NCBI GenBank assembly: GCA_017395245.1
Contig: JAFPVR010000071.1
Coordinates: forward strand, 1 to 64,000
Source: Bacteroidales bacterium
Lineage (GTDB): Bacteria; Bacteroidota; Bacteroidia; Bacteroidales; WCHB1-69
Direction of reading: 5' to 3'
Length of the DNA: 64,000 nucleotides
The notes under the pieces are model-generated. The model ran no database searches. It saw nothing but the letters and a program-made list of their open reading frames with translations, and was not told the origin of the DNA. How positions within the stretch are numbered: the stretch's first letter is position 1; every line of letters begins with the position of its first letter. The position numbers were made by a program, and so were the translations under genes. This document shows, piece after piece, positions 8,315 to 60,377 of the stretch.

Positions 8315-9907
8315 ATGAATGAGAATAGACGCAACGGATGCCTTGTAATTCTGTGGATTCTGGTCGCTTTTTTGGCTGGATTCTCGCTCGCATTGCATAT
8401 AAGCCCCAATCGTTTGAGCAAGAAGGGGAAGACCCAGCTCAACAAGATGAGCGAGGTGATGAGCTATATCGACCAATACTATGTGGATTCCGTCAATGTG
8501 GATTCCATTTACGGGCTGGCCATCAACGCGATGCTGCAAGGGCTGGATCCGCACTCCACCTACTCCACCGCCGAGGACAACAAAGCACTGATGGAGACGC
8601 TGGAGGGTTCGTTCGAGGGCATCGGCATCCAGTTCAACATTATGAACGATACGCTGATGGTGGTCTCGGTCATCTCCGGCGGCCCCTCCGAGAAAGCCGG
8701 TCTGATGGCGGGCGACCGCATGGTGGAAGTGGATGGGAAATCCATTATCGGCATCAAGAACGATCAGGCTTACAAACTGTTGCGTGGCAAAAAAGGCACA
8801 AAAGTGAAAGTCGGCATCCTGCGTCCGGGGTTCAAAGACAAATACACGTATGAGATCACGCGCGGGGTAATCCCGACCTATACGGTGGACGTGGCCTACA
8901 TGATGGACGGCACCACTGGCTATATCAAACTCAATGAGTTCGGCAGCACCACCGCCAAGGAGTTCAACGACGCCATCCTGAAGCTGAAACGGCAAGGCAT
9001 GACCTCCCTGATTGTCGATCTGCGCTCCAACACCGGAGGATTTTTAGATGCCGCCATTAGTGTTTGCGACGAGTTTCTGCCCAAAAACCGCGAAATCGTC
9101 TCTATCGAAGGGGCAAAAGTGCGCCCCGAGGTGGTTTACGCCTCCAAAAAAGGTGACTTCGAGGAGGGCAAGGTGGTCATCCTGATTGACGATTTCAGCG
9201 CATCGGCAAGCGAGATTGTGGCGGGTGCAGTGCAGGACAACGACCGAGGCATTATCGTGGGTCGGCGTTCCTTCGGCAAAGGACTGGTACAGCGACAGTT
9301 CGACCTTTCCGACCAATCGTCCATCCGGCTGACAACCTCGCGCTATCACACGCCCAGCGGCCGTTGCATCCAGCGCGAATACACCCACGGCACCGACGCC
9401 TATTACGAGGATCTGTACAACCGCTTGCTCAACGGCGAAATGGATAGCGCGGACAGCATCCACCTCGACTCCACGAAGGTGTATCACACGCTGAAAGGAC
9501 GCACGGTTTATGGCGGCGGCGGCATTATGCCCGACTACTTCGTGCCCATCGACCGCGGCGAGGACATGGATGCCTATTACGACATCGCCAACTCCCCCTC
9601 TCTCATCCAATTCGCCTTCCACTACGCCAACGACAACAAATCCGCGTTGAAAAAGCAGTTCCCGGATGCTAAATCCTACGTCGCAGGCATGACCGTCACG
9701 GACGCGATGATCCAGCAGCTGGTCGCCTATTACGAGAAAAACAACAAGAAAAAAGTCTCGAATATGACCGCCAACGCCTCCAAGGAGCTGAAAGTCTGGC
9801 TGAAGGCACTCATTGGCCGCAACCTCTACGGCGACGAAGCCTTCTATCCGGTCATCAACAAGACGGATAAAGTGGTACTCAAAGCGCGGGAGGTACTAAA
9901 CAACTGA
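8315..9907 (+). CDS. S41 family C-terminal processing peptidase, 530 aa
   Basis: A Tsp/CtpA-type serine protease acting in the periplasm. One N-terminal membrane anchor (about residues 9-28) is followed by a PDZ domain (about 100-185, VISGGPSEKAGLMAGDRMVEVDG) and the tail-specific protease core. The catalytic serine is in FSASASEIVAGA (near residue 295) and the general-base lysine in RRSFGKGLVQ (near 322), both intact. It trims or degrades proteins recognised by their C-terminal residues. It is monocistronic. Its TGA stop opens a short heptamer element shared with the convergent aroG gene. Confidence 0.92.
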   Translation: MNENRRNGCLVILWILVAFLAGFSLALHISPNRLSKKGKTQLNKMSEVMSYIDQYYVDSVNVDSIYGLAINAMLQGLDPHSTYSTAEDNKALMETLEGSFEGIGIQFNIMNDTLMVVSVISGGPSEKAGLMAGDRMVEVDGKSIIGIKNDQAYKLLRGKKGTKVKVGILRPGFKDKYTYEITRGVIPTYTVDVAYMMDGTTGYIKLNEFGSTTAKEFNDAILKLKRQGMTSLIVDLRSNTGGFLDAAISVCDEFLPKNREIVSIEGAKVRPEVVYASKKGDFEEGKVVILIDDFSASASEIVAGAVQDNDRGIIVGRRSFGKGLVQRQFDLSDQSSIRLTTSRYHTPSGRCIQREYTHGTDAYYEDLYNRLLNGEMDSADSIHLDSTKVYHTLKGRTVYGGGGIMPDYFVPIDRGEDMDAYYDIANSPSLIQFAFHYANDNKSALKKQFPDAKSYVAGMTVTDAMIQQLVAYYEKNNKKKVSNMTANASKELKVWLKALIGRNLYGDEAFYPVINKTDKVVLKAREVLNN

Positions 9908-9939
9908 CCTTCCCGTCAAAGGTCAAAGGTCAAAGGTCA
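9905..9939. repeat. Heptamer array joining two convergent stop codons (TGACCTT)
   Basis: On the minus strand TGACCTT is repeated three times (9939 to 9919) followed by TGACGGG; the first TGA is the aroG stop. On the plus strand the S41 stop starts another TGACCTT (9905-9911). Both convergent genes therefore end with the same heptamer. Confidence 0.8.
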
Positions 9940-10956
9940 CCTCTGCCGCTCAATGGATGTTTGGTGCAGCAACTCCAGAAACTTTTCCAAAAACTCCTGA
10001 TACGCAACGTCTTCCGGATGCGTCTGGTAACGTTTCACCACCTGCTGCCACTGCTGCGGCTGAACCACGGCAATGTGGTTTTTCCGCTTTATGTCCGCGA
10101 TTTCGTCCGTAATCATCATTCGCTGGTATAGGAGCTCACTAAGCTGGTTGTCAATGTTTTCCAACTTTGCCCGTTGCTTGACAAGCGACAGATCTGGAGT
10201 GTCGTTGCGCAGGTCCAGATGGGTAACCAACTCGACCCACTGCGCCGGTGTCATCTGCTGGTCGGCATCGGAAAGGGCTTGCGAAGGGTTGAGATGACAC
10301 TCGGTCATCAAACCGTTAAATCCATAGTTCATAGCCAGTTGTGCCACCTGCGGTATCCATTTTACATTTCCGCAAAGATGCGACGGGTCACAGAGAATCG
10401 GCAATTCTGGCATCCGCACCTTCAGTTCAATGGGAATCTGCCAAACGGGCGCATTGCGGTAGACGTTCTCCTGTGCATCGGTAAAGCCCCGGTGCACGGC
10501 CATCACCCGACGGATGTCCGCCTTCAGAAACCGCTCGATATTGCCCATCCACAACTTGAGGTCGGGAATGATCGGATTCTTGACCATCACGATGAAATCC
10601 GCGCCAGAGACTGCATCCGCAATCTGCTGCACTTCCGTCGGATTGACACCGGTTCGCGCGCCAACCCATACAGCGCGGATACCGTGCTTCGCGCACAGTT
10701 CCACCTGCCGGGCATTCATCACCTCCACACAGACGGGCACATCGTATGTTTCCTGCACCTCGCACAACCACGGCAAAGCCTCTTCGCCCGCGCCGCAGAA
10801 GCTGTCAGGATTACTGCGGACCTTCCACGCGCCGGCCCGGAAATAATCCAGCCGAAAGCCTGCACTCGCCGACTTTTCGACCAGTTCCGCTGCCGTCGCC
10901 AACAACTGCTCACGACTTTCCGCCGCACAAGGACCCGCTATCCAAATCCGTTCCAT
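9937..10956 (-). CDS. aroG: Bifunctional DAHP synthase / chorismate mutase, 339 aa
   Basis: The N-terminal part (about 1-240) is a type-I-beta DAHP synthase, with GPCAAESREQL, the FRAGAWKVRSNPDSFCG region, WVGARTGVNP, VMVKNP and the C-terminal DPSHLCGN motif. It condenses phosphoenolpyruvate with erythrose 4-phosphate. The C-terminal 90 residues are a chorismate mutase type II helical domain (KLENIDNQLSELLYQRMMITDEIA). This fusion is usual in Bacteroidetes and lets prephenate or chorismate control pathway entry. The ATG at 10956 shares its A with the TGA of the upstream gene (TGATG) and is preceded by GGAGGAG, an unusually good ribosome-binding site for this genome, so the two genes are translationally coupled. 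Confidence 0.92.
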   Translation of the reverse strand: MERIWIAGPCAAESREQLLATAAELVEKSASAGFRLDYFRAGAWKVRSNPDSFCGAGEEALPWLCEVQETYDVPVCVEVMNARQVELCAKHGIRAVWVGARTGVNPTEVQQIADAVSGADFIVMVKNPIIPDLKLWMGNIERFLKADIRRVMAVHRGFTDAQENVYRNAPVWQIPIELKVRMPELPILCDPSHLCGNVKWIPQVAQLAMNYGFNGLMTECHLNPSQALSDADQQMTPAQWVELVTHLDLRNDTPDLSLVKQRAKLENIDNQLSELLYQRMMITDEIADIKRKNHIAVVQPQQWQQVVKRYQTHPEDVAYQEFLEKFLELLHQTSIERQR

Positions 10957-15425: not shown

Positions 15426-15443
15426 CTTACAAAAAATGGTCTG

Positions 15444-15451
15444 CAAATCTA
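15444..15451 (-). promoter_or_regulatory. -7 box (TAGATTTG, minus strand)
   Basis: Reverse complement of CAAATCTA, 19 bp before the start of the 1489-aa gene and presumably also driving aroG. Confidence 0.55.
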
Positions 15452-15488
15452 CACAAATTCCGAATACGCACCGACAGGGATGTTCCCA

Positions 15489-23036: not shown

Positions 23037-23861
23037 ATGAGCTGGTTAGAAGCCTTAATCCTTGGTATCGTTCAAGGATTGACTGAATTTCTGCCCGTAA
23101 GCAGTAGCGGGCATCTCACTATTTTGTCCAACCTCTTCGGGCTGGAAGGCGAATCCAACCTGACGATGATTGTCGCGCTGCACGTGGCTACCGTGCTCAG
23201 CACGCTGGTTATCCTGTGGAAGGAAGTCGTCTGGATTTTCAAGGATTTGTTCACCAAACAGTCGTGGAAAAGTTACTCCGGACTGAACGAGGGCACCCGT
23301 TTTGCCATCAACATCCTGATTTCCATGATTCCCATCGGCATTGTGGGTGTTTTCTTTAAGGACACCGTGGAGGAAATCTTCGGCTCCGGGCTGCTGATTG
23401 TCGGCATTATGCTGTTGGTCACGGCAGCATTGCTGGCTTTCTCCTATTTCGCCAAACCTCGCCAGCGTGAGGAGATTTCCCCACTGCACGCCTTCATCAT
23501 CGGTATCGGGCAGGCGGTGGCCGTGCTGCCGGGTCTGTCGCGTTCGGGAACCACCATCGCCACAGGTCTGCTCCTCGGCAACAAGAAGGAGCGGATGGCG
23601 CAGTTCTCCTTCCTGATGGTCATCCCGCCGGTCTTGGGCGAAGCCCTTTTGGACGTAATGGACATCGCCGATAAAGGCTTTAGCACCGCCATGGACGGCA
23701 TCTCGCCGGCGGCGCTCATCATCGGTTTCCTCGCCGCGTTCATCACGGGATGTGCCGCCTGCAAATGGATGATCAACATCGTGAAGAAGGGCAAACTCAT
23801 CTGGTTCGCCGTTTACTGCGTGATTATCGGCATCCTGGCCATCGTTCTCAGCCAATTATGA
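23037..23861 (+). CDS. uppP: Undecaprenyl-diphosphatase, 274 aa
   Basis: BacA/UppP integral membrane phosphatase that recycles undecaprenyl diphosphate to the monophosphate carrier. Both conserved motifs are intact: [15 protein letters not shown] near residues 13-27 and [15 protein letters not shown] near 165. About eight TM helices. It overlaps truB by 4 bp (ATGA). Confidence 0.95.
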
Positions 23862-24610
23862 GAGAGAACCAGAAGTTCCAACATGTCTCCTTCGATTTGC
23901 CCGGGTTAGACATCAACCCGGAGGGCGACCTTTTGCTGATTGACAAGCCTTACAACTGCACGTCGTTCGATGTGGTGGGCAAGGTGCGCAAGATGGCGAC
24001 GAAAATCGCTGGACACCACGTAAAGGTAGGCCACGCCGGCACACTTGACCCCTTAGCCACCGGGCTGCTGATCATCTGCGTTGGCAAGATGACCAAGCAA
24101 GTGGACACGTTGCAGACGCAGGAGAAGACTTATACGGGCACGTTCCGCATGGGCGCGACAACCCCGAGTTTCGATATGGAGAAGCCCATCGATGCCACCT
24201 ACCCCTACGAACACATCACCCGCGAGATGGCCGAGGAAGCCGTCCGCGCTCTCACGGGTGACATCCAGCAGATTCCGCCGGTGTTCTCCGCCGTGAAACA
24301 CCAGGGCGAACGCGCCTACCTTATCGCCCGTCGCGGCGACGAGGCACAACTCACCGCCAAGAATATCACCATTTACGAGTTCGAAATCACCCGTTTCGAG
24401 CTGCCGGACATCGACTTCCGTGTCCGCTGCTCCAAAGGCACCTACATCCGCGCCCTCGCCCGCGACTTCGGCACCGCGCTCAACAGCGGAGCTCACCTCA
24501 CCGCACTGCGGAGGACCCGCATTGGCAGCCTCTGCGTGGAAGACGCAATAGTGCCGGTGATCAAGGAGCGGGACGGGGAAACGGTCCCGCCAACGCCGGT
24601 ACGGGAATGA
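23858..24610 (+). CDS. truB: tRNA pseudouridine-55 synthase TruB, 250 aa
   Basis: The ATG at 23858 overlaps the uppP stop and gives MRENQKF; the frame continues 36 codons upstream inside uppP but not as TruB sequence. The catalytic Asp is in [12 protein letters not shown] (near residue 55), with [15 protein letters not shown] and [15 protein letters not shown] further on. It modifies U55 in the T-loop of tRNAs. The last residues (TPVRE) and the TGA stop are encoded by the first units of the 22-bp tandem array that follows, so the natural C-terminus may have been replaced by repeat sequence. Confidence 0.94.
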
Positions 24611-24781
24611 GCAAACGCCGGTGCGGGAATGAGCAAACGCCGGTGCGGGAATGAGCAAACGCCCATGCAGGAATGAGCAAACTCCCGTGCAGGAATGAGC
24701 CGACGAACATGGGTTTATAGGCAAATGAACCTATGTTCATAAGCTAACGAACCTATGTTCATGGGCCGACAAAACCATGTG
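24584..24781. repeat. 22-bp tandem array, nine progressively diverged units
   Basis: Units start at 24584, 24606, 24628, 24650, 24672, 24694, 24716, 24738 and 24760. Units 2 and 3 are identical (AATGAGCAAACGCCGGTGCG plus GG); later units drift to CATAAGCTAACGAACCTATG plus TT but keep a common skeleton nATnnGCnnAC. The first unit lies inside truB and the truB stop is in the second. There are no spacers, so it is not CRISPR. Confidence 0.85.
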
Positions 24782-24791
24782 ATTCGCTAAA

Positions 24792-24831
24792 CAAAAAAAG
24801 TGAGACATCGGCATTCATGCCAACGTCTCAC
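24792..24831 (-). terminator. Intrinsic terminator of atpDC (minus strand)
   Basis: GTGAGAC (24800-24806) pairs with GTCTCAC (24825-24831) with an inner GGCAT/ATGCC stem. On the minus strand the hairpin is followed by seven T residues (24793-24799). It lies beyond the 30-bp repeats, so these would be transcribed as part of the atpDC 3' UTR. Confidence 0.7.
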
Positions 24832-24839
24832 ATCTTACG

Positions 24840-24965
24840 TCTTTACGTCGTTCGGCAGGAATGCCGAACCTCCTAAAACGTTCGGGAGGAATGCCGAACC
24901 TCCTAAAACGTTCGGGAGGAATGCCGCTTCTCCTAAAACGTTCGGCAGGAATGCCGAAACTCCTA
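24840..24965. repeat. 30-bp tandem array of small hairpins (four units)
   Basis: Units of about 30 bp share AAAACGTTCGG, AGGAATGCCG and a CTCCT end. The two units reading GTTCGGCA ggaa TGCCGAA(C) form self-complementary hairpins; the GGGAGG units pair less well. The period is ten codons, so a plus-strand frame reads FGRNAEPPKT repeatedly, but I do not consider it a gene. The array abuts the 3' end of atpC. Confidence 0.8.
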
Positions 24966-27788: not shown

Positions 27789-27819
27789 CTATTGCCTTTT
27801 GCCTTTTGCCTTTTGCCTA
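27789..27819 (-). repeat. Heptamer array starting at the infC stop (TAGGCAA/AAGGCAA)
   Basis: Reading the minus strand from the infC TAG: TAGGCAA, then AAGGCAA three times, then TAG. The stop codon is the first triplet of unit 1. Confidence 0.8.
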
Positions 27820-34517: not shown

Positions 34518-36548
34518 ATGAATCCTTTACTGAAACAATGGACCACCCCGTGGGGAACCCCACCGTTCAATGAAATCAAAATCGAGCACTGGCTGCCGGC
34601 TTTTGAAGAGGCCGTGGCAGAAGCGAAACAGGAGATCGAAGCCATCGCAGACAACCCTGCCACAGCCGATTTCGAAAACACCATCGTCGCGCTCGACCGT
34701 GCGGGCGACCGGCTCAGCACAGTCGCCGACCTCTTTTTCAACCTGCTCGAATGCAACGGCGACGATGAAATGAACGCTATTGCCGAGCAAGTGCAACCGC
34801 TGTTGGTAGCGCACGAGAACGAAGTATACCAGCACCCTGCGCTCTTCGCCCGCGTGAAGGCTGTCTATGACCGGCAAAAGACCGACAAAGCACTGTCTGG
34901 CGCTGATAAGATCCTGTTAGACAAGACGTACGACGCTTTTGTGGCAGGTGGTGCCAATCTCCCCGAGAAGGAAAAGGCACGTTACCGCGAACTGTCGTTG
35001 GAGTTGGCCAACCTGCAACTCGACTTCGGACAACGTGCGCTGAAGGCCACCTACGCCTGGTCCGCGCATTTGGAGAAAGATTCGCCCCGGTTGTCCGGAA
35101 TCCCCGATAGCGCCCGTGCCATCGCCGCGAAAAAAGCCGCTGACAAGGGGCTCGACGACTACATCTTCGACCTCTCCGCCCCTGACGTGAACGTTGTGCT
35201 CACCCATGCCGACGACCGTACCCTGCGCGAGGAGGTCTATCAACATTCCAGCAAGAAAGCTTTCGGCGGAGAATTTGACAACTGCGACAATATCAAAGCC
35301 ATCTTGAAATGCCGGGAAGAAATCGCACATCTACTTGGCTATCAACATTATGCCGACTACGCGCTTCGCAACCGCATGGCCAAAGACCTGAAACTCGTAT
35401 ACCAACTTCTGGATGATTTGAAGGCCGCTGCCCTGCCCGCCGCCCGCCGTGAAATCGAAGAGCTGAAGCAATTCGCTAAAAGTCAAGGCTTCGAGGGCGA
35501 ATTTCAACGCTGGGACCTCAGCTACTATATGGAGAAACTGCGACAGGAGAAGTTCAGCCTCGATATGGAGAAACTGAAGGTCTACTTCCCGCTCCATCAA
35601 GTGATTGACGGCGTGTTCGGATTGGCCACAACCCTTTACGGGCTGCGCTTCGAGAGGTCGGAGACGATACAGCCCTATCATCCCGACGTGCAGGTGTATG
35701 AGGTCTGGCGCGGCGAGCAGTTTATGGCCGTACTCTACCTCGACTTCCATCCGCGCAGCACCAAACGCAGTGGCGCGTGGATGACCGAGTTCCGTGACCA
35801 GTACATCGCCGCCGACGGCCATGACGTGCGCCCGTGGGTAAGCCTCGTCATGAACTTTACCCCGCCGACCCCCGACCAGCCTTCCCTGCTGACCGTCGAT
35901 GAGGTGAACACGTTTCTGCACGAGTTCGGCCACGCGCTCAACGGCATGCTGTCGGAAGTGAAATACGCCACATTGTCCGGCACGCATTCGCCTCGCGATT
36001 TTGTGGAACTGCCCTCCCAACTGAACGAAAACTGGCTCACCGAACCCGAATTTCTGAACACCTTCGCCTGCCACTACCAAACCGGCGAACCTATTCCGGA
36101 AGAATACGTCACACAGCTGAAGAACCTGAACAAATTCATGGCCGGATACCTTTGCGTGCGACAGCTCTCGTTCGGCTACCTCGACATGATGTGGCACACC
36201 ATGTCCGCCGCCAATGTGGACGATGTCCTGCGCTTAGAGCGTTCCATTTTCGACACGGTCGAGGTGCTGCCGGTAGTGCCGGGCGCATGCATGAGCACTT
36301 CGTTCGGGCATCTTTTCTCCGGAGGTTACGCAGCAGGCTATTACGGCTACAAATGGGCCGAAATGCTCGAAGCCGACGCCTTTTCGCTTTTCAAGGAGAC
36401 TGGCGTGATGAACAAAGAGACGGCACAACGTTATTTGGAAACCATCCTCTCCAAAGGCGGTTCTGTGGACGCGATGGAGATGTTCGTCAATTTCCGGGGA
36501 CGTGAACCGAAAATCAACGCCTTGTTGGAGCGCGACGGCCTCCTGTAG
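34518..36548 (+). CDS. M3 family zinc metallopeptidase (Dcp/oligopeptidase A type), 676 aa
   Basis: MNPLLKQWTTPWGTPPFNEIKIEHWLPAFEEA is the typical Dcp/OpdA N-terminus, and the zinc motif HEFGHALNGML is near residue 472, with the distal ligand in the ELPSQLNENW region. FGHLFSGGYAAGYYGYKWAEML near 595 is the conserved C-terminal block. There is no signal peptide, so it is cytosolic and degrades short peptides. The length matches E. coli Dcp and OpdA, and I cannot decide between them. Its TAG stop is part of the TAGAGACG repeat cluster that follows. Confidence 0.92.
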   Translation: MNPLLKQWTTPWGTPPFNEIKIEHWLPAFEEAVAEAKQEIEAIADNPATADFENTIVALDRAGDRLSTVADLFFNLLECNGDDEMNAIAEQVQPLLVAHENEVYQHPALFARVKAVYDRQKTDKALSGADKILLDKTYDAFVAGGANLPEKEKARYRELSLELANLQLDFGQRALKATYAWSAHLEKDSPRLSGIPDSARAIAAKKAADKGLDDYIFDLSAPDVNVVLTHADDRTLREEVYQHSSKKAFGGEFDNCDNIKAILKCREEIAHLLGYQHYADYALRNRMAKDLKLVYQLLDDLKAAALPAARREIEELKQFAKSQGFEGEFQRWDLSYYMEKLRQEKFSLDMEKLKVYFPLHQVIDGVFGLATTLYGLRFERSETIQPYHPDVQVYEVWRGEQFMAVLYLDFHPRSTKRSGAWMTEFRDQYIAADGHDVRPWVSLVMNFTPPTPDQPSLLTVDEVNTFLHEFGHALNGMLSEVKYATLSGTHSPRDFVELPSQLNENWLTEPEFLNTFACHYQTGEPIPEEYVTQLKNLNKFMAGYLCVRQLSFGYLDMMWHTMSAANVDDVLRLERSIFDTVEVLPVVPGACMSTSFGHLFSGGYAAGYYGYKWAEMLEADAFSLFKETGVMNKETAQRYLETILSKGGSVDAMEMFVNFRGREPKINALLERDGLL

Positions 36549-36643
36549 AGACGCGCCATGGCACGTCTCTACAAATGCGCCATGGCACGTCTCTACAGAT
36601 GCGGTGCACACGTCTCTACAAACGTGCCATGACGCGTCTCTAC
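36544..36643. repeat. Cluster of TAGAGACG palindromes (one full, three further arms)
   Basis: TGTAGAGACG (36544-36553) pairs with CGTCTCTACA (36564-36573). More CGTCTCTACA arms end near 36597, 36619 and 36642, separated by GCGCCATGGCA-like linkers. The M3 peptidase stop codon (36546-36548) is inside the first arm. Confidence 0.85.
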
Positions 36644-36671
36644 AATATGTCGGATGAACGGGAAAATTGTG

Positions 36672-42593: not shown

Positions 42594-43403
42594 ATGGATG
42601 CCTCTTTCCTAAGCACAGCCTTTAACATCTACCTTTGGGTGATGATAGGCATCGCGCTGGTGGTCTTCATCGCGCTCTACCATGTCGAAGCCGGCTACGG
42701 AATGTTCACTTCCAAGAAATGGGGGTTGAGCATCAACAACAAAGTGGCGTGGTTCTTGATGGAATTCCCCATCTTCGCGGCCATGATTGTCATCTGGCTG
42801 CTTTCGCCGCATCGCTTCGACATCGTGCCGCTCGTCTTCCTGATCATCTTCGAAATCCACTACTTCCAACGCGCTATCATCTTCCCCTGGCTGATGAAAG
42901 GAAAGAAGAGCCAGATGCCGCTTTCCGTCATGTTCATGGGCATCGCCTTCAACATCTTGAATGCCCTGATGCAAGGCTATTGGTTTTTCTTCGAGTCGTT
43001 CAACCGCGACTACCACGCTTTCGGATTGTCCTACTCGGATGTCGCATGGCTTTGGTCGCCGCATTTCATCATCGGAGTCGTCATCTTCTTCCTCGGTTTC
43101 TACGTCAACCTGCGTTCGGACTACATCATCCGGCATCTGCGCAAAGACGACGAAGACACGAAGCATTATTTGCCGGAAGGCTTTATGTTCGAGTACGTTA
43201 CGAGTGCCAACTATTTGGGCGAGCTAATGGAGTGGTTAGGATTCGCCATCCTCACCTGGTCGATGTCCGGGTTGGTGTTCTTCATCTGGACCTTCGCGAA
43301 CCTTGTGCCGCGCGCCAACGCCATCTACAAGCACTACAAGGTAGAGTTTGGGGAGATTATGGAGCGGAAAAAGCTGAAGAGGGTGTTTCCGTTTATTTAT
43401 TAG
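42594..43403 (+). CDS. Steroid 5-alpha-reductase family membrane protein, 269 aa
   Basis: Six or seven TM helices. The C-terminal half carries the SRD5A signature ANYLGELMEWLGFAILTWS (residues about 200-218), a preceding PEGFMFEYVTSANY segment, and WTFANLVPRANAIYKHYKVEF ahead of a basic end KRVFPFIY. The N-terminal half has EIHYFQRAIIFPWLMKGKKSQMPL, also family-like. Members reduce the delta-4 bond of 3-oxo steroids with NADPH; bacterial homologues may use host steroids or other enones. The substrate here is not shown by the sequence. Confidence 0.82.
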   Translation: MDASFLSTAFNIYLWVMIGIALVVFIALYHVEAGYGMFTSKKWGLSINNKVAWFLMEFPIFAAMIVIWLLSPHRFDIVPLVFLIIFEIHYFQRAIIFPWLMKGKKSQMPLSVMFMGIAFNILNALMQGYWFFFESFNRDYHAFGLSYSDVAWLWSPHFIIGVVIFFLGFYVNLRSDYIIRHLRKDDEDTKHYLPEGFMFEYVTSANYLGELMEWLGFAILTWSMSGLVFFIWTFANLVPRANAIYKHYKVEFGEIMERKKLKRVFPFIY

Positions 43404-52034: not shown

Positions 52035-52103
52035 ATCCAACAAATCACTAATCACAAATCACTAATCACAACTCACTAATCACAAATCACTAATCACAAA
52101 TCA
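52035..52103 (-). repeat. Heptamer array at the acyltransferase stop (TGATTTG/TGATTAG)
   Basis: Reading the minus strand from the stop: TGATTTG, TGATTAG, TGATTTG, TGATTAG, TGAGTTG, TGATTAG, TGATTTG, TGATTAG, TGATTTG. The gene's own TGA is the first triplet. The array fills almost the whole gap to the ATP-grasp gene. Confidence 0.88.
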
Positions 52104-52838
52104 CAAATGAGTACGAACATAATGATACTTCTCATCCATCTCGCGCTGAATCTCCAGGTCGAAAATACGTTTCATCCCCGTCGCCTTCACGGAAGCCGGC
52201 ATCCCCGCCAAGAGCGTATACGGCTCTATGTTGGAGAAATCCTTGTTCACCAGACTATTGGATGCAATAATCGTCTTGCTCGGCACCACGGCGCCTTTGG
52301 TGAAGGTGGTGCGGTTGCCGACCCAGATGTCCTCGCCGAGGATGATGGGCTTGGTCAAGGGCCCGATTTCCCCGTCCTTGTTGAGGTTCTGCACGTAGTG
52401 GAAGGTCGTGTCCATGAACTGGCAGTCCCAGGCGGCCCGCACATTGCTGCCGATGACGATCCGGTCGAAGCAGAAAATCTTGAGGTTGGTGCCGAAATAG
52501 GATTCCCTTTCGCCGAACTCCAACGTCGCGTTGTCGGAAATCACCACGTAGGAGCCGTGGCCGAAGATGACAGGTCCGTTGAAGATGAGCGTTCCCCGCA
52601 CGTTCCAGATGCACTGTTGGATGGCGGTATCGACATAATGGTCGTTTTTCCCGATTCTGATCATCCCGGAGGTAATCGGCCCGTTGATGACGATTTTCCC
52701 CGCGAGACTGCGGAAGGTCACCTTCCCGTACAGCCACACCGGCAGCTTCTTCGCCACCGCGAAGGGGAAGACCTTGAAGTTGAACCAGAGGGTCTTGATG
52801 ACGTTGATGGTTCGGATGATGTAGAGTAGTCGTCGCAT
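52101..52838 (-). CDS. Left-handed beta-helix (hexapeptide) acyltransferase, 245 aa
   Basis: The ATG at 52838 (MRRLLYIIRTINVIKTLWFNFK) is preferred; an alternative TTG six codons upstream lies inside the heptamer array. An N-terminal amphipathic helix is followed by irregular hexapeptide turns (KIVINGPI, GTLIFNGPVIFGHGSYVVISDNATLEFGE, RIVIGSNVRAAWDCQFMDTTFHY) and the classical IILGEDIWVGNRTTFTKGAVVPSKTIIASNSLVNKDF, then AGMPASVKATG. It resembles O-acetyltransferases of capsule/LPS loci. It works with the neighbouring ATP-grasp gene in a surface-glycan pathway (inference). Confidence 0.85.
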   Translation of the reverse strand: MRRLLYIIRTINVIKTLWFNFKVFPFAVAKKLPVWLYGKVTFRSLAGKIVINGPITSGMIRIGKNDHYVDTAIQQCIWNVRGTLIFNGPVIFGHGSYVVISDNATLEFGERESYFGTNLKIFCFDRIVIGSNVRAAWDCQFMDTTFHYVQNLNKDGEIGPLTKPIILGEDIWVGNRTTFTKGAVVPSKTIIASNSLVNKDFSNIEPYTLLAGMPASVKATGMKRIFDLEIQREMDEKYHYVRTHL

Positions 52839-52841
52839 GTT

Positions 52842-52966
52842 GGTTTCAGGTTTCAAGATTCAAGATTCAGGATTCAGGTTTCAAGTTCCAAGTCTCAAGT
52901 CCTAAGTCCTAAGTCTCAAGTCTTAAATCTCAAGTCCTAAGTCCCAAGTCCCAAGTCTCAAGTCTA
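52842..52966 (-). repeat. Heptamer array at the gmhA stop, about 18 units (TGAGACT family)
   Basis: From the gmhA TAG on the minus strand: TAGACT, then TGAGACT, TGGGACT twice, TAGGACT, TGAGATT, TAAGACT, TGAGACT, TAGGACT twice, TGAGACT, TGGAACT, TGAAACC, TGAATCC, TGAATCT twice and TGAAACC twice. The array reaches to within 3 bp of the next start codon and fills the whole intergenic space. Confidence 0.9.
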
Positions 52967-53542
52967 TCGCCCAAACATCTCCGTCTCCACCAGTTCGCAG
53001 ACAATATGCCCGATCATAATGTGGCTCTCCTGGATGCGGGGGGTGTCGGTGGAGGGCACGTTGAGGAGGATGTCAGCGGAATCCTTCATCTTGCCACCTG
53101 TTTCGCCGGTCATGGCGACAATCTTCACGCCCAGTTCCTTGGCCACCTCGAAAGCGTTGAGGATGTTCTTGGAGTTGCCCGACGTGGAGATGCCCACGAT
53201 GACATCGCCGGCCTTGGCCGAGCCTCGCAGCAGGCGCGAGAAGATGAGGTCGTAGCCGTAGTCGTTGCCCACGGCGGTGAGGTAGGAGGTGTTGCAGTGG
53301 AGGGCCTCGGCGTTGAGCGGCGGCCGGTCGAAGTAAAAACGACCTGAAAGCTCAGCGGCGAGGTGTTGCGCGTCGGCCGCGCTGCCGCCATTGCCGCAGA
53401 AGTGGATCTTGCCGCCGTTGCGCAAGGATTCGGTGATGGTCGCCGCAGCCGTCTCTATGCGGCCCAGAAATGCCTGGTCGTTCAATATCGCCTGTTTCGC
53501 GGCGACGCTCTCCTCTATGGATTTTGAAATTCTTGAGTTCAT
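52964..53542 (-). CDS. gmhA: Sedoheptulose-7-phosphate isomerase, 192 aa
   Basis: SIS-domain protein with FCGNGGSAADAQHLAAELSGRF near residues 48-69, GISTSGNSKNILNAFE near 117, and TPRIQESHIMIGHIVCELVE near 170 containing the conserved E/H active-site residues. Converts sedoheptulose 7-phosphate to glycero-manno-heptose 7-phosphate for heptose-containing surface glycans. The other heptose genes (hldE, gmhB) are not in the window. First gene of the minus-strand glycan group. Confidence 0.92.
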   Translation of the reverse strand: MNSRISKSIEESVAAKQAILNDQAFLGRIETAAATITESLRNGGKIHFCGNGGSAADAQHLAAELSGRFYFDRPPLNAEALHCNTSYLTAVGNDYGYDLIFSRLLRGSAKAGDVIVGISTSGNSKNILNAFEVAKELGVKIVAMTGETGGKMKDSADILLNVPSTDTPRIQESHIMIGHIVCELVETEMFGR

Positions 53543-53577
53543 TTTATATATTTTGAAAGGGTGTTTGAAAAACGGCG

Positions 53578-53585
53578 CGAAGATA
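53578..53585 (-). promoter_or_regulatory. Variant -7 box (TATCTTCG, minus strand)
   Basis: One mismatch from TATCTTTG, 36 bp before gmhA; divergent from the cyclophilin promoter. Confidence 0.45.
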
Positions 53586-53616
53586 CGGATTTTTCGGAAA
53601 CAAACCTAAAAAAATG

Positions 53617-53624
53617 TATCTTTG
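53617..53624 (+). promoter_or_regulatory. -7 box (TATCTTTG)
   Basis: Located 32 bp before the cyclophilin gene, in the context AACCTAAAAAAATGTATCTT, matching the typA promoter region. Confidence 0.68.
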
Positions 53625-53656
53625 CCGCTTGTTTGTAAATTGACGAGAAAAAGAAT

Positions 53657-54385
53657 ATGAAAAGAACCGTAATCACCTGTATTGCATTGGTTTCCATACT
53701 GTTAACAGCTTGTTCTTCTGTGAAGACCAAAGAGGAACCCGCCAACACCATGGCCACCGGGCAGACATCCCAAAACAAAGATAACGAAAAGATGACCCAA
53801 GTCTTACTGAAAACCACCTTCGGCGACATTGTGATCGCCCTTTACAACGACACGCCCCAACACAAGGCCAATTTCGAGAAATTGGTGAACGAAAAGTTCT
53901 ACGACGGCGTGCTGTTCCACCGCATCATCAAGGGGTTCATGATCCAGGGCGGCGACCCTGACTCCAAGACCGCGAAAGCCGGCCAGCGTTTAGGCTCCGG
54001 CGATGTGGGCTACACCATCCCCGCCGAGTTCGTGCCCGCGCACATCCATAAGCGCGGCGCCGTGGCCGCAGCCCGCATGGGCGACAACGTCAACCCGCAG
54101 AAGGCCTCCTCCGGCTGCCAGTTCTACATCGTCGACGGCACCGTCTACGACAACGACAAGCTGAATATGATTGCCATGCGCACCGGCAAGACCTTCACCC
54201 CCGAGCAGGTCAAGGCCTACACCACCGACGGCGGCGCCCCCTTCCTTGACGGCGACTACACCGTCTTCGGCGAAGTCGTGAAAGGCATGACCGTGGTCGA
54301 CAAAATCGCCGCCCAACAGAAAGACGCCGCCGACCGCCCCCTGGAAGACATCAAGATCATCAGCGCCACCATCCTCAATAATTGA
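53657..54385 (+). CDS. Cyclophilin-type peptidyl-prolyl isomerase, lipoprotein, 242 aa
   Basis: Lipobox LLTACSS with Cys19, a short linker, then the cyclophilin fold from about residue 50: TTFGDIVIALYNDTPQHKANFEKLV, FHRIIKGFMIQGGDP with the catalytic Arg, and DGDYTVFGEVVKGMTVVDKI. Compared with other family members it has a loop insert (GSGDVGYTIPAEFVPAHIHKRGAVAAAR), usual in Bacteroidetes. It isomerises X-Pro bonds in periplasmic proteins. The TGA stop opens an 11-unit heptamer array that reaches to pheS. Confidence 0.93.
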   Translation: MKRTVITCIALVSILLTACSSVKTKEEPANTMATGQTSQNKDNEKMTQVLLKTTFGDIVIALYNDTPQHKANFEKLVNEKFYDGVLFHRIIKGFMIQGGDPDSKTAKAGQRLGSGDVGYTIPAEFVPAHIHKRGAVAAARMGDNVNPQKASSGCQFYIVDGTVYDNDKLNMIAMRTGKTFTPEQVKAYTTDGGAPFLDGDYTVFGEVVKGMTVVDKIAAQQKDAADRPLEDIKIISATILNN

Positions 54386-54459
54386 GACTTGAGACTTAAG
54401 ACTTGAAACCTGAATCTTGAATCTTGAAACCTGAATCCTGAAACTTGAATCCTGAATCT
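54383..54459 (+). repeat. Heptamer array at the cyclophilin stop, 11 units (TGAGACT/TGAATCT)
   Basis: Exactly 77 bp: TGAGACT twice, TAAGACT, TGAAACC, TGAATCT twice, TGAAACC, TGAATCC, TGAAACT, TGAATCC, TGAATCT. The gene's TGA is the first triplet, and every unit starts with TGA or TAA. The same unit vocabulary occurs on the other strand at 52842-52966. Confidence 0.92.
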
Positions 54460-54466
54460 AACGATT

Positions 54467-55492
54467 ATGAAAAGCATAGACGAAATCAGAGCAGAAATCG
54501 AAAGCTACCAGATCGAAAGCGCGGAAAGCCTCGAGCAGTTCCGCCTCCAGTTCCTGAGCAAGAAGAGCGAAATCCAGGCCTTGTTCGGCGAAATCAAGAA
54601 CATGGCCCAGGAGAACCGCAAGGAGTTCGGGCAGTTGGTGAACGACCTCCGCGACATGGCCCAGGAGCACTATAACGAGTTCAAGGGCCGCTTGGAGGCC
54701 GCCACCGACAAGAAGGCCGACCTCATCCCCGACATCACACGCCCCGCCGCGCGTCAGCAAGTGGGCTCCATGCACCCCATCTCCCTGATGATGGCCGAGG
54801 TGCGCCGCATCTTCGAAGACATCGGTTTCTCCGCCGTGGAGGGTCCCGACATTGAGGACGACTGGCATGTGTTCACCGCCCTCAACTTCGCCGAGGAGCA
54901 CCCTGCCCGCGACATGCAGGACACCTTCTTCATCGAGCTGCACCCCGACGTGCTGTTGCGCACGCATACCTCGTCGCTCCAGGTGCGCACCATGGAGAAG
55001 CAGCAGCCCCCCATCCGTGTGATCTGCCCGGGCCGCGTCTTCCGCAACGAGGCCATCACCTCCCGCGCCCACTGCATCTTCCACCAGGTGGAAGGCCTGT
55101 ATGTGGCTGAGAAAGTGTCGTTTGCAGACATGAAGCAGACCCTGCTCTATTTCGCCCAGCGCATGTTCGGCGACGAGGTCCGCATCCGCCTGCGCCCCTC
55201 CTACTTCCCGTTCACCGAGCCGTCGGCCGAGATGGACGTCTCCTGCAACATCTGCGGCGGCGCCGGCTGCAACCTCTGCAAGCACACCGGCTGGGTCGAA
55301 ATCCTCGGCTGCGGCATGGTCGACCCCAACGTCCTCGAGAACTGCGGCATCGACAGCACCAAATACAGCGGCTTCGCCTTCGGCCTCGGCATCGAGCGCA
55401 TGACCATGCTCAAGTACCGCACCAACGACATCCGCCTCTACTTCGAAAACGACCTCCGCTTCCTCCAACAATTCAAAGCCGCGACGCGGTAA
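54467..55492 (+). CDS. pheS: Phenylalanine--tRNA ligase alpha subunit, 341 aa
   Basis: N-terminal coiled-coil arm (about 1-90), then the class II catalytic core: HPISLMMAEVRRIFEDIGF, DMQDTFFI, LLRTHTSSLQVRTM (motif 2 region), GRVFRNEAITSRAHCIFHQVEGL, and motif 3 GFAFGLGIERMTMLKY. A four-Cys cluster CNICGGAGCNLCKHTGW near residue 262 is typical of this family branch. It charges tRNA-Phe with PheT, whose gene is not adjacent. Confidence 0.96.
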   Translation: MKSIDEIRAEIESYQIESAESLEQFRLQFLSKKSEIQALFGEIKNMAQENRKEFGQLVNDLRDMAQEHYNEFKGRLEAATDKKADLIPDITRPAARQQVGSMHPISLMMAEVRRIFEDIGFSAVEGPDIEDDWHVFTALNFAEEHPARDMQDTFFIELHPDVLLRTHTSSLQVRTMEKQQPPIRVICPGRVFRNEAITSRAHCIFHQVEGLYVAEKVSFADMKQTLLYFAQRMFGDEVRIRLRPSYFPFTEPSAEMDVSCNICGGAGCNLCKHTGWVEILGCGMVDPNVLENCGIDSTKYSGFAFGLGIERMTMLKYRTNDIRLYFENDLRFLQQFKAATR

Positions 55493-55533
55493 AGGCAGTA
55501 GGCAGTAGGCAATAGGCAGTAGGCAGTAGACCG
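55490..55533 (+). repeat. Heptamer array at the pheS stop (TAGGCAG)
   Basis: After the TAA stop: AAGGCAG-like start, then TAGGCAG, TAGGCAA, TAGGCAG, TAGGCAG, TAGACCG. Every unit begins with TAG. Confidence 0.82.
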
Positions 55534-55570
55534 AACGAACATTATGATATATTATAACATATTCCAAGAG

Positions 55571-55670
55571 GGCTGCAAGCCCGACACGTGTCAACCTAGG
55601 GTGAACGAAGTGAGCCCTAGGGCTGCAAGCCCGACCTATGCTAACCTAGGGTGAACGAAGTGAGCCCTAG
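55571..55670. repeat. Two tandem 50-bp repeats with internal palindrome
   Basis: GGCTGCAAGCCCGAC, a variable 7-bp core (ACGTGTC or CTATGCT), then AACCTAGGGTGAACGAAGTG and AGCCCTAG. The second copy begins exactly 50 bp after the first. Each has CTAGGG...CCCTAG arms and GGCTTGC/GCAAGCC-like symmetry. Located just before the DUF2723 gene. Confidence 0.82.
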
Positions 55671-55704
55671 GGATTAGAACGATAATTAACTAACACCTGT
55701 AATA

Positions 55705-58700: not shown

Positions 58701-59349
58701 AGTGCTGGTGCGCGGCAACGAGGTGATGCCCGACTTCAACTTCCCGTACGTGTCGGTGATGTCCTACATCTACGGCTACACCCACAGCTGTATCACCTAC
58801 ATGGAGGACTTCTTCCGCATCGGTTCGGACGCCGCCAACAAGAAAGGCATGGAGATGGCCAACCAGATCTGGGACGACCAGGTCGCCCTCTTCAACTGGT
58901 ACAACAACTGCGACGAGCGCACGCTCGACTACCGCAGCAGCGACATCCACTACGACTTCCTGTTCCTCCACTACATGATGAACAACGTCCGCTATCCGGA
59001 CAACAGCCTGACCCAGCGTTACAAAGAGCTGAAGATCGACAATGTTGCGATGAACTATGCCAAATCGCTGCAGGCCAGCATTGGGGCGCAGATGCGCAAG
59101 GCTGAACTCGACCAGCAGTCCGTGGCCGGCTCCTTCCAGGAACTGCACCAGCTGCAGGAGATTGCCAAAATGATCGGCGACAACGCCACCGCCCAGAAGA
59201 TCGAGGGCATGGCCGCCTCGCAGCTCGACATGATGACCAGCCTCTCCCCCGAACTTGCCGCCGCCTTCCGCCAATTCTACCACAGCATGGACCGCCAGGA
59301 GCAGCCCGTGGTTGAGGAGGAAGAAGAGGTTGCGGATAACGAAAAATAA
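55705..59349 (+). CDS. DUF2723 family membrane protein (O-mannosyltransferase-like), 1214 aa
   Basis: The first about 420 residues have some ten TM helices, beginning with EPTVSWWDCGEYIATTSKMLIGHPPGAPTF, the DUF2723 signature that resembles the luminal Asp of GT-C protein O-mannosyltransferases. More TMs follow near residues 560-690, then a long soluble C-terminal part (ALFTLGDNDTFPLWYAQEVEGYRTDVRVCN; helical repeats to the end) and an acidic tail EEEEEVADNEK. It probably transfers a sugar from a lipid carrier to exported proteins, in line with O-glycosylation in Bacteroidetes, but this is inference. Monocistronic and closed by a good terminator. Confidence 0.88.
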   Translation: MTKTQKRINNLIGLIIGIVASAVYIMTAEPTVSWWDCGEYIATTSKMLIGHPPGAPTFQILGRIATLFAGGDVTKMAFCVNCLSAICSGMTIMLLYFSLVRLARKLVAKWGELNTPRFIAILGTALVGALTYTFSDTFWFSAVEGEVYAMSSFFTALVFWCILKWDEEYEHPKPNVNPNRWIVLIAYLVGLSIGVHLLNLLTLPAIGLIIYYRLNPKATHWGAVLAFALIAFAFSIFCSPLWMILIWVFISIPLLILCGKHGALTSKAEWGVTLSLLVSVALLGIILWGIVPQVVNLSGKFDLFFVNTLHLPFNSGVIFFFLLIAAIIGWGIWYGYKRNKPVYSISAFSLMMLIIGYSTFMTLVIRSNANPTIDENSPEDAVSLLSYLNREQYGSNPLLYGQYYNTRVVDMKDGNPVYFRNEETKRYEVSNPRKGDVPVYDPKGCGFFPRMWSSEKQSQYIDWLNNRYNSDSPSDKDNRRALARGGRPTWQQNIKFFHSYQLGYMYWRYFMWNFAGRQNDLQGHGDYQNGNWISGIGAIDNPMVGNLKDMPAAVERPAHNKYYLLPLILGLVGLAFQTKNDSKHSFVVFMLFIMTGLAIAIYLNMYAFQPRERDYAFAASFYAFAMWVGFGVLGIYRLFEKLQSKSVQTAGALLTTLVCFGAVPCVMAKENWHDHDRSDRYTALAVAKNYLDSCEPNAILFTLGDNDTFPLWYAQEVEGYRTDVRVCNLMLLSTSWYVDQMKRKAYESDPLPISMTWEQYRDGTRDVLYLEAANNQFLDLSALMDYVKSPNFDNVSRIFLLKPNAGYRSNGRAIPASFSLPVDKAKVLANGTVAAKDSALVVDRLMWNMKTNGVNPLTKAYIVMMDILANNNWERPIYYAATAGSEAYLGLEDYFQLEGFAYRLVPIRSQSRSYGETGRINSDVLYHNLMTVFDDHSRLDQVKNPGAKHEAYPYAWGGFNDPKVYHSEDNTRLVPLMRRLYARLAEQLMAEGDKDKALEVLVRGNEVMPDFNFPYVSVMSYIYGYTHSCITYMEDFFRIGSDAANKKGMEMANQIWDDQVALFNWYNNCDERTLDYRSSDIHYDFLFLHYMMNNVRYPDNSLTQRYKELKIDNVAMNYAKSLQASIGAQMRKAELDQQSVAGSFQELHQLQEIAKMIGDNATAQKIEGMAASQLDMMTSLSPELAAAFRQFYHSMDRQEQPVVEEEEEVADNEK

Positions 59350-59369
59350 CCAACAAACGATAACCCTGT

Positions 59370-59400
59370 AGAGACGCGCCACGGCGCGTCTCTTTTTTTT
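59370..59400 (+). terminator. Intrinsic terminator made from the TAGAGACG palindrome
   Basis: AGAGACGCGCC (59370-59380) pairs with GGCGCGTCTCT (59383-59393), followed by seven T residues. It ends the DUF2723 transcript and shows a repeat-family member recruited as a terminator. Confidence 0.82.
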
Positions 59401-59401
59401 A

Positions 59402-59593
59402 GGAGGTTCCGCTCGCTCACTGCGTTCGCTTGCGGAATGGTGCACGCCGCCAGGAGAGGGAGAGGGAAAAGATGGGCGGCGGGGGGAGTTGCTCCGTTGC
59501 CGGAGACTGCATCTTCGCCGCCCATCTTTTCCCTTTTTTACCCCGCGTGCGGCGCACCATTCCGCGAGACGCGAAGCGTCGAGCGGAACCTCC
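59402..59593. repeat. 192-bp imperfect palindrome (MITE-like element)
   Basis: Three nested perfect arm pairs: GGAGGTTCCGCTCG (59402-59415) with its complement at 59580-59593; GCGGAATGGTGC (59432-59443) with 59554-59565; an 18-bp arm GGGAAAAGATGGGCGGCG (59464-59481) with 59516-59533. The centre has CTCCG/CGGAG. A further GAGCGGAACCTCC copy lies at about 59620. No gene is supported in 59350-59683. Confidence 0.8.
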
Positions 59594-59649
59594 AACGAAC
59601 AACCACTCTTACAGTTGGTGAGCGGAACCTCCATAACCAAAAAAAATGT

Positions 59650-59657
59650 TACTTTTG
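59650..59657 (+). promoter_or_regulatory. -7 box (TACTTTTG)
   Basis: Located 26 bp before elbB, preceded by the AAAAAAATGT context common to other promoters here. Confidence 0.62.
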
Positions 59658-59683
59658 CACCGTTAAATCAAACATAAGCCATT

Positions 59684-60331
59684 ATGAAAAACTTCGCAGT
59701 AATATTGTGCGGCTGCGGCACATTGGACGGCAGCGAAATCCATGAATCGGTGATGACCCTCTTAGCCATCGACCGCAACGGCGGCGAATACCAGATTTTC
59801 GCCCCAAACGACTGGCAATACCACGTCGTGAACCACGTCACGGGACAACCGATGGACGAAAAGCGCAACATGCTCTTGGAGGCGGCGCGCATCGCCCGCG
59901 GCAACGTGAAACCCATCAGCGAGTGCCGCGTGGAGGACTTCGACGCGGTGGTCTTCCCCGGCGGCAACGGTTCCGCCAAAAACCTCTTCACCTACGCCAT
60001 CGAGGGTGCGAACTGCTCGGTGCGTGAGGACGTTGCGGCCGTCATCCGTGCCTTCCACAAAGCCGGCAAGCCCGTGGGCGCCCTCTGTATCGCCCCCGTC
60101 ATGATTGCCAAGGTCTTGGGTGACGTCACCATCACTGTCGGCAGCGACCCCGGCACCATCCGCAACGTGGAAAGTTTCGGCACGAAGCACGAGGTCACCG
60201 TCCAGAAGGGCGTCTGCTGCGACACGGCCAACAAGGTCTTCACCACCCCCTGCTACATGCTCCCCGCCCGCATCTCCGATATTGCCGACTGCGCGGATAA
60301 CCTCGTAAAGGCCATGTTGCAGGTGATGTGA
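59684..60331 (+). CDS. elbB: ElbB-type glyoxalase / DJ-1 superfamily protein, 215 aa
   Basis: Class I glutamine-amidotransferase-like fold: AVILCGCGTLDGSEIHESVMTLLAIDR at the start, PGGNGSAKNLFTYAIEG near residue 90, and the nucleophile elbow GALCIAPVMIAKVLG near 130 with the Cys intact. E. coli ElbB (GlxIII-like, SCRP-27A) has glyoxalase activity and was named for an isoprenoid link. The TGA stop opens a heptamer array. Confidence 0.93.
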   Translation: MKNFAVILCGCGTLDGSEIHESVMTLLAIDRNGGEYQIFAPNDWQYHVVNHVTGQPMDEKRNMLLEAARIARGNVKPISECRVEDFDAVVFPGGNGSAKNLFTYAIEGANCSVREDVAAVIRAFHKAGKPVGALCIAPVMIAKVLGDVTITVGSDPGTIRNVESFGTKHEVTVQKGVCCDTANKVFTTPCYMLPARISDIADCADNLVKAMLQVM

Positions 60332-60377
60332 GACTTAGGACTTAAGACTTAAGACTTAAGACTTAGGACTTAAGACG
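60329..60377 (+). repeat. Heptamer array at the elbB stop, 7 units (TAAGACT)
   Basis: TGAGACT, TAGGACT, TAAGACT three times, TAGGACT, TAAGACG. The elbB TGA is the first triplet and every unit starts with a stop codon. Confidence 0.92.

What the first reader, a model, noticed from the sequence alone, without database searches (positions are those of the whole stretch)
9905..60377. Intergenic heptamer arrays begin exactly at stop codons
At least eight separate 7-bp tandem arrays occur (9905, 27789, 43401, 52035, 52842, 54383, 55490, 60329). In each the array starts at the stop codon of the flanking gene, and in most the stop triplet is the first three bases of unit 1. The unit sequences differ between loci (TGACCTT, TAGGCAA, TGATTTG, TGAGACT, TAGGCAG, TAAGACT) but nearly all begin with TGA, TAG or TAA. 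Since 7 is 1 modulo 3, three units put a stop in every frame. Short heptanucleotide arrays (STRR) are known from cyanobacteria, but I know of no report of stop-codon anchoring. Possible meanings: arrays growing out of the stop codon by slippage, selection against read-through in all frames, or a protein or RNA device marking ORF ends.
Basis: seen in the sequence. Interest (0 to 1): 0.78.

Follow-up and report, generated by a model that had tools for sequence, protein, structure and literature searches.

The report
Repeat arrays that become stop codons
In one genus of gut bacteria from ruminants, short 7- or 8-letter DNA repeats lie between genes and begin at the stop codon far more often than random placement gives; they differ from species to species at the same gene, and they likely arrive behind genes and then take over the job of the lost original stop codon.

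Summary
All eight window arrays touch a stop codon (edges -5 to +3 nt). In a 0.85 Mb sample of the same genome there are 103 period-7 segments, against 0 in a Markov control. Of 74 stop-facing edges, 42 lie within 7 nt of the stop (13.5 expected by random placement in the same gaps); start-facing edges do not (15 of 70, 12.3 expected). Arrays are frequent in this ruminant Bacteroidales genus (25 per 373 kb) and rare in other families sampled (1 per 339 kb). Unit families are dispersed and species-specific, and sister species carry different arrays at the same stop.

Best account: arrays arrive just behind stops in short gaps, the spacer erodes, and a stop-bearing array replaces the old stop, because 7 and 8 are not multiples of 3. 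The orientation split and the states seen at one SIS-domain gene fit this. Short ancestral gaps explain much of the anchoring (20 of 32 observed, 12.8 expected); exact in-register starts stay about threefold above a random-arrival model.

Stop-proximal heptamers are in print (Xanthomonas/Nostoc; Beggiatoaceae). This is a new variant with species-by-species turnover and apparent stop replacement. How arrays spread is unknown.

The parts
9915..9939 (-). 3.6-copy TGACCTT array whose first triplet (9939-9937) is the TGA stop of the minus gene 9937-10956 (DAHP synthase/chorismate mutase by Pfam)
27792..27818 (-). AAGGCAA array after the TAG stop (27819-27817) of the translation initiation factor IF-3 gene; the first unit reads TAGGCAA
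43401..43431 (+). degenerate TAGTGAG/TAGTGAA/CTGTGAA/CAGTGAT array starting with the TAG stop of gene 42594-43403
   Evidence: sequence; in register
52043..52108 (-). TGATTTG/TGATTAG array that runs 5 nt into the end of minus gene 52101-52838 and supplies its TGA stop; orthologs read in relatives end in TAA
52842..52965 (-). array of about 17 units (GACTTGA grading into GAATCCT) filling the gap between SIS-domain gene 52964-53542 (TAG stop) and the start of gene 52101-52838
54382..54458 (+). TGAGACT array starting at the TGA stop of cyclophilin gene 53720-54385
55493..55529 (+). AGGCAGT array directly behind the TAA stop of the class II (F) tRNA synthetase core gene (PF01409) 54467-55492; out of register
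60332..60376 (+). TGAGACT/TAAGACT array in register with the TGA stop (60329-60331) of gene 59684-60331
60396..60479 (-). second array of the same family in inverted orientation (two called pieces, 60396-60440 and 60445-60479), ending at the ATG (60480) of the shikimate kinase gene

Best explanation
Arrays of a species-specific 7- or 8-base unit often sit directly behind stop codons, differ between sister species at the same gene, and likely became anchored because they arrive just behind a stop and then replace it as the spacer and the old stop are deleted (a stop-capture ratchet). Shown: stop anchoring, species-specific dispersed families, different arrays at orthologous stops, the orientation split, and an excess of stops in register with the unit. 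Inferred: (1) arrays arrive as ready-made pieces copied from elsewhere in the genome; (2) they are tolerated in the few free bases behind a stop, since array-free orthologous gaps are mostly short; (3) small deletions then remove the spacer. An array with a stop triplet on its sense strand can survive loss of the old stop, because a unit length of 7 or 8 puts a stop in every frame within three units. An array in the other orientation cannot, so it stays parked behind the old stop. Later slippage changes copy number.
For: Dispersal: pattern matches in 40 genomes of the genus are GACTTRA own 334, G007 105, G016 100, G019 7, G012 0; TGATTTG/TGACTTG G019 210, own 31; octamer TAACCSTS G012 107, own 0, G019 0; overlapping matches within one array count separately. 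Turnover at fixed sites: the cyclophilin-gene stop is followed by TGAGACT units (own), GATTTGT (G019), TAACTCC (G009), TAATTGA (G002), and no scored array in G016 and G031; the 54467-gene stop is at the same codon in the 30 loci cut out (own and 29 others) with different arrays or none behind it. Orientation split: at d<=2, 30 of 32 own arrays bear stops on the sense strand; at d 3-7, 9 of 17 (Fisher p=0.0016). Genus loci, partly chosen for having arrays: 53 of 62 at d<=2 against 14 of 27 at d 3-20 (p=0.0013). Exact in-register starts: 52 of 93 in-register stops have at most 2 array bases before the stop; a random-arrival model gives 15.4 in total (own 16 of 28 against 5.1). Candidate intermediate: the SIS-gene end reads AAA-TAA-A-TAGACTTGAGACTT in G007 and CGA-TAGACTTGAGACTT in own; G020 and G006 have TAA-AA-TAGACC. 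Stop usage at d<=2 in own shifts away from TAA (8 of 32 against 305 of 646; p=0.017). Array-free orthologous gaps where another species has an array (minimum per gap set, 12 sets): -4, 1, 18, 18, 19, 54, 65, 69, 75, 83, 96, 370 bp.
Against: No before/after pair is polarised by a tree; the SIS-gene series is one locus and could run the other way. With arrays placed uniformly in the shortest array-free orthologous gap, 12.8 of 32 would lie within 7 nt and 20 do, so compact gaps explain much of the anchoring without a ratchet. In the genus set 5 of 39 arrays overlapping ORF ends fall below my stop-bearing cut, which the ratchet does not predict. In L162-L181 start edges are also raised (9 of 17 within 7 nt against 5.7, maximum 10 of 1000). 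In-register stops differ from array-free orthologs only a little more often than array-free pairs do among themselves (identical 36 of 77 against 124 of 210; pairs not independent). Two-copy heptamer runs are about twice as dense at 0..14 nt behind stops as further out, which favours local duplication at some loci. The arrival was not seen and no enzyme was sought.
Confidence: 0.48

Rival explanations
1. Arrays are born in place: 7 bases starting at the stop codon are duplicated by slippage and expand, so stop register and position follow from the birth site.
For: G013 shows TAATGCATAATGCATAATTG at the 54467-gene stop where G010, G020 and G006 have a single TAATGCATATC; two-copy heptamer runs number 24 at 0..14 nt behind stops, 1.3-1.6 per 1000 positions against 0.5-0.9 beyond 15 nt; the own AGGCAGT array has a single AGGCAAT at the same place in G009.
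Against: One unit family at many loci in one species and nearly absent in sisters. Arrays without sense-strand stops also abut stops. In-place duplication that includes the stop would give 0-4 coding bases in the first unit about evenly (my expectation), but 12 of 28 own cases have 0 and 4 have 1.
Confidence: 0.2
2. Position is only a by-product: arrays insert anywhere between genes, ancestral gaps were so short that any insertion lies near the stop, and the in-frame stop of the array is used when it overlaps the ORF end. No ratchet and no targeting.
For: Array-free orthologous gaps are short (median 49 bp over 55 species-gap cases) and the ortholog-based expectation is 12.8 of 32. Own arrays that overlap ORFs are spread over 1-20 nt (judged by eye).
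Against: 20 of 32 observed; 52 of 93 in-register starts against 15.4; 17 own arrays at +3..+7 but 4 at +8..+20; start edges of own not enriched.
Confidence: 0.17
3. Selection keeps arrays at stops because stops in all three frames end read-through and frameshifted translation.
For: Forward orientation prevails at d<=2 (30 of 32); 7 and 8 are both non-multiples of 3.
Against: At +3..+7 the orientation is even (9 to 8). Ho and Hurst 2019 (PMC6764699, abstract) find no selection for additional stops in eubacteria. In own 53 stop-adjacent arrays stand against 646 stops examined, so most genes do without.
Confidence: 0.08
4. Arrays are binding sites of a species-specific RNA- or DNA-binding protein that marks transcript 3' ends.
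For: Species-specific unit families and a place behind the ORF.
Against: Both orientations occur; 31 of 74 stop edges are more than 10 nt from the stop; units drift within one array (52842-52965). No candidate protein was sought.
Confidence: 0.05

Closest known systems
TAACTGA direct repeats of Beggiatoaceae, Cyanobacteria and five Bacteroidetes (MacGregor 2015, PMC4679880; abstract, sections 9, 12, 15 and passages read)
   Same: Intergenic tandem heptamers, sporadic by lineage, forward units with stops in all three frames, some overlapping the stop of the upstream gene (13 sets), in some cases absent from close relatives at the same gap. The author already suggests that mobile repeats could be fixed at gene ends because of their stops.
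   Different: There one unit was studied, most sets within several nt upstream of START codons. Here many units, an octamer in one species, anchoring at STOP codons, no start enrichment in own, and different arrays at the same stop in sister species.
GGGAATC / GGGGA(T/C)T heptamer repeats of Xanthomonas and Nostoc (Rehm et al. 2015, PMC4692102; section 13 and passages read)
   Same: Period 7, intergenic, strong bias to lie within 50 bp of or overlapping the stop on the coding strand; repeats of similar length not at the same genes in two related species. They find few between divergent genes; here 8 of 72 divergent gaps hold arrays against 56 of 338 tandem and 11 of 68 convergent ones (gaps of 20 bp or more).
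   Different: G-rich quadruplex-forming unit, distances binned at 50 bp. Here units are not of that type, the stop is often in register with the unit, and the stop codon can differ with the array.
Cyanobacterial STRR heptanucleotide repeats (recalled; seen here only as mentions in papers found)
   Same: Short tandem heptanucleotides.
   Different: Not compared here; I recall no report of stop register.

Membership tests
MacGregor-type TAACTGA heptamer sets | unit TAACTGA | tested here: not met
   Units in own are GACTTRA, TGAATCC, TAGTGAT, TAGGCAA, TAACCAA, TAACTGC and others (read from the printed arrays); TAACTGC comes close.
MacGregor-type TAACTGA heptamer sets | most sets a few nt upstream of a start codon | tested here: not met
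   Start edges within 7 nt in own: 15 of 70 against 12.3 expected. In the smaller genus sample 9 of 17 against 5.7.
MacGregor-type TAACTGA heptamer sets | forward units give stops in three frames and may overlap upstream ORF ends | tested here: met
   19 of 53 stop-adjacent own arrays overlap an ORF end, all 19 stop-bearing.
Rehm-type G-rich heptamers | unit GGGAATC or GGGGAYT, quadruplex-forming | tested here: not met
   I saw that unit in none of the 101 arrays as printed (first 50 bases each, by eye); quadruplex formation not tested.
Rehm-type G-rich heptamers | close to or overlapping the stop, with strand bias | tested here: met
   42 of 74 stop edges within 7 nt; 30 of 32 stop-bearing on the sense strand at d<=2.
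Cyanobacterial STRR | STRR unit sequences | not tested
   Unit sequences not fetched.

The most novel reading that the evidence does not exclude
A copying process disperses ready-made heptamer or octamer arrays in trans through these genomes and joins them by the bases of the stop triplet itself, so that TAA-units tend to land on TAA stops and TGA-units on TGA stops: stop codons act as landing sites for a mobile tandem repeat.
Probability: 0.12. Interest if true: 0.85.

Novelty: new variant of a known kind. Interest (0 to 1): 0.52.

Why it matters
Heptamers are described as the most abundant class of longer simple repeats in many bacterial genomes, with little detailed study (earlier work as cited in the two 2015 papers read). 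Here the arrays turn over fast enough that orthologous stops in sister species carry different units. That makes two questions testable by comparing strains: how such arrays reach new loci, and how a gene end is rewritten when a repeat supplies a new stop. It also bears on gene calling and on comparisons of protein tails, since some C-termini in this genus are set by repeats.

Tried and rejected
Rejected: assembly artefact. Rejected: wrong gene strand at 52035 and 52842; the minus-strand genes are conserved at 84-97% in relatives, and Pfam supports the SIS gene; gene 52101-52838 has no Pfam match. Rejected: a general rule for every intergenic element; TTCCTTRAGCAGYC and GGGCTG elements do not pile up at stops (1 of 15 and 0 of 8 within -20..+7), while TAGAGACG palindromes show a spike at exactly 0 (5 of 44 at one end, 9 of 47 at the other; within 7 nt 9 of 44 against 5.5 expected).

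Weak points: home-made gene caller and start calls. The first null (placement in today's gap) overstates the effect; the ortholog null lowers it. The own sample includes the window, which was picked for its arrays. L162-L181 were cut around orthologs of genes that flank an array in own (54467 in 19, 8315 in 1); the other-family stretches mostly likewise. L182-L221 are orthologous to array-rich stretches, and L222-L321 were fetched because they hold arrays or their patterns. In-register counts (93) were de-duplicated within sets only. Confidences changed slightly on re-check (best account 0.5 to 0.48, by-product 0.15 to 0.17) because the genus start edges and the 5 of 39 overlapping arrays below the cut are now counted against it.

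Led nowhere: Rfam on the window found one tRNA; STRR and tandem-stop paper searches gave little beyond the Ho and Hurst paper.
Full report
WHAT WAS CHECKED. The window is a stretch of contig C54 of a 3.78 Mb draft genome. The nearest named relatives of the protein tried are uncultured Bacteroidales, several with ruminant names in their record titles. Reading the eight places and a lag-7 scan shows every array touching a stop, at edges -5 to +3 nt. The 9905 array belongs to the convergent minus-strand gene, not to the plus-strand stop at 9905. The 43401 array is degenerate and below my cut. A second, inverted array at 60396-60479 ends at a start codon. Flanking genes are ordinary: S41 peptidase, DAHP synthase, IF-3, SIS domain, cyclophilin, a class II (F) tRNA synthetase, shikimate kinase.

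IS IT MORE THAN CHANCE. I sampled 61 pieces of the same genome, 847,729 bp including the window. Period 7 stands alone: 103 segments against 0 in an order-3 Markov control, while periods 4-6 and 8-13 give 0-8. Multiples of 7 (14, 21, 28) are also high, as expected from the same arrays, and period 22 gives 19. Of 101 merged arrays 3 lie inside called genes although 87% of the sample is coding. In 72 array-bearing gaps of 30 bp or more, 42 of 74 stop-facing edges lie within 7 nt of the stop, against 13.5 +- 2.6 when arrays are placed at random in the same gaps (maximum 21 of 2000); start-facing edges give 15 of 70 against 12.3. In gaps of at least 150 bp the figures are 25 of 44 against 5.0 for stops and 6 of 40 against 3.6 for starts.

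WHO HAS IT. In stretches from 20 same-genus genomes (L162-L181, cut around orthologs of genes 54467 or 8315) there are 25 period-7 segments in 373 kb; 11 of 17 stop edges are within 7 nt (6.1 expected, maximum 10 of 1000) and 9 of 17 start edges (5.7 expected, maximum 10). Twenty stretches from other families of the order have 1 segment in 339 kb, and three Flammeovirga loci none in 64 kb.

UNIT FAMILIES ARE DISPERSED AND SPECIES-SPECIFIC. Over 40 genomes of the genus, GACTTRA gives 334 pattern matches in own, 105 in G007, 100 in G016, 7 in G019, 0 in G012 (20 of 40 genomes have any). TGATTTG/TGACTTG gives 210 in G019 and 31 in own (16 of 40). The octamer TAACCSTS gives 107 in G012, 0 in own, 0 in G019 (10 of 40). 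Overlapping matches in one array are counted separately. Patterns read backwards gave no match for the last two and 7 forward plus 3 reverse in all for GACTTRA.

SAME STOP, DIFFERENT ARRAYS. For gene 54467-55492, the 30 loci cut out (own and 29 others; 54 of 60 genomes searched had a match) have the stop at the same codon; behind it lies a short leader or one of several arrays. At the cyclophilin stop, own has TGAGACT units, G019 GATTTGT, G009 TAACTCC, G002 TAATTGA; G016 and G031 have no scored array. At L079 11955 five genomes share a TAGTTAG/CAGTTAG array with changed copy number. In G012, 13 of 16 forward arrays found near a stop have the TAA stop as the unit's own TAA (one stop is listed twice, so 12 distinct); 12 of 48 lay near an opposite-strand stop and 20 of 48 near no called stop. 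In G019, 8 of 11 have TGA in register; 4 of 25 lay near an opposite-strand stop and 10 of 25 near none, one place being listed twice.

THREE COMPONENTS OF ANCHORING. (a) Arrays that run into the ORF end and supply its stop: 19 of 53 own stop-adjacent arrays, all stop-bearing; in the genus set 34 of 39. (b) Arrays starting 3-7 nt behind the stop in either orientation (own 9 with, 8 without enough sense-strand stops), with only 4 at 8-20 nt; in the genus set 16 and 11. (c) Arrays starting exactly with the stop in register: of 93 in-register stops over all sets, 52 have 0-2 array bases before the stop, 26 fall in unit 2, 12 in unit 3, 3 later. A model with random phase and frame expects 5.1 of 28 in own, where 16 are seen (maximum 12 of 1000); 6.4 of 38 in L162-L221 (21 seen), 2.3 of 14 in G019 (8 seen), 1.6 of 13 in G012 (7 seen).

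CORRECTION OF THE NULL. Orthologous gaps without arrays are mostly short: minima -4, 1, 18, 18, 19, 54, 65, 69, 75, 83, 96, 370 bp over 12 gap sets. If arrays had landed uniformly in the shortest array-free ortholog, 12.8 of 32 would be within 7 nt; 20 are. So compact gaps explain a good part. The register peak and the orientation split remain.

MECHANISM. The account that I find fits best is arrival behind the stop followed by erosion and capture. A deletion that removes the spacer and the old stop is tolerated only if the array supplies another stop, which a 7- or 8-base unit with a stop triplet does in every frame within three units. This predicts the orientation split, the pile-up at +3..+7 for arrays that cannot capture, and the in-register peak (deletions between the old stop and the first like triplet of the array). 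The SIS-domain gene shows the states side by side: TAA followed by A and TAGACTTGAGACTT in G007, TAA-AA-TAGACC in G020 and G006, and own with TAGACTTGAGACTT directly after the last codon. At 52101 the 4 array-free relatives end in TAA while own ends in the array's TGA. Arrival by copying, the deletions and the direction of change are inferred, not shown. Against: 5 of 39 overlapping arrays in the genus set fall below the stop-bearing cut; stop identity changes only a little more with in-register arrays than without (36 of 77 against 124 of 210 identical), protein length somewhat more (41 of 77 against 155 of 210 equal). A local birth at the stop remains likely at some loci (G013 at gene 54467).

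WHAT IS KNOWN. Searches of the open full-text library found two close precedents. MacGregor 2015 describes TAACTGA arrays, notes stops in three frames, and suggests that mobile repeats would be fixed at gene ends. Rehm et al. 2015 describe heptamers near or overlapping stops with strand bias. In the listings of these searches I saw no paper that reports replacement of arrays at one stop from species to species, or array-derived stop codons in register; most subscription papers are not held. A 2025 survey of short tandem repeats reports weak enrichment upstream and downstream of bacterial genes (PMC12699852, passages). Hence: new variant of a known kind.

Noticed in passing
own sample and genus loci: Short palindromes TAGAGACG..CGTCTCTA (79 gap copies) begin exactly with the TAG stop in 5 of 44 cases at one end and 9 of 47 at the other, with one copy each at 1-4 nt, as if they too can supply stops.
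   Followed up: partly
G012 (loci L252-L301): One species of the genus carries an octamer family TAACC[CG]T[CG] at many loci (107 pattern matches), while the GACTTRA heptamer pattern has none there.
   Followed up: partly
window 24592-24965: Arrays of 22-bp and 30-bp units in one gap, beginning near the end of gene 23858-24610.
   Followed up: no
window 55569-55672: Two copies of a 50-bp element (GGGCTGCAAGCCC type) that recurs in other genomes of the genus and lies behind the 55493 array.
   Followed up: partly
window 36553-36645: 24-bp unit repeated about four times directly behind gene 34518-36548.
   Followed up: no
window 60332-60479: Two arrays of one family in opposite orientation in one gap might form a long imperfect hairpin in RNA; not folded.
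   Followed up: no
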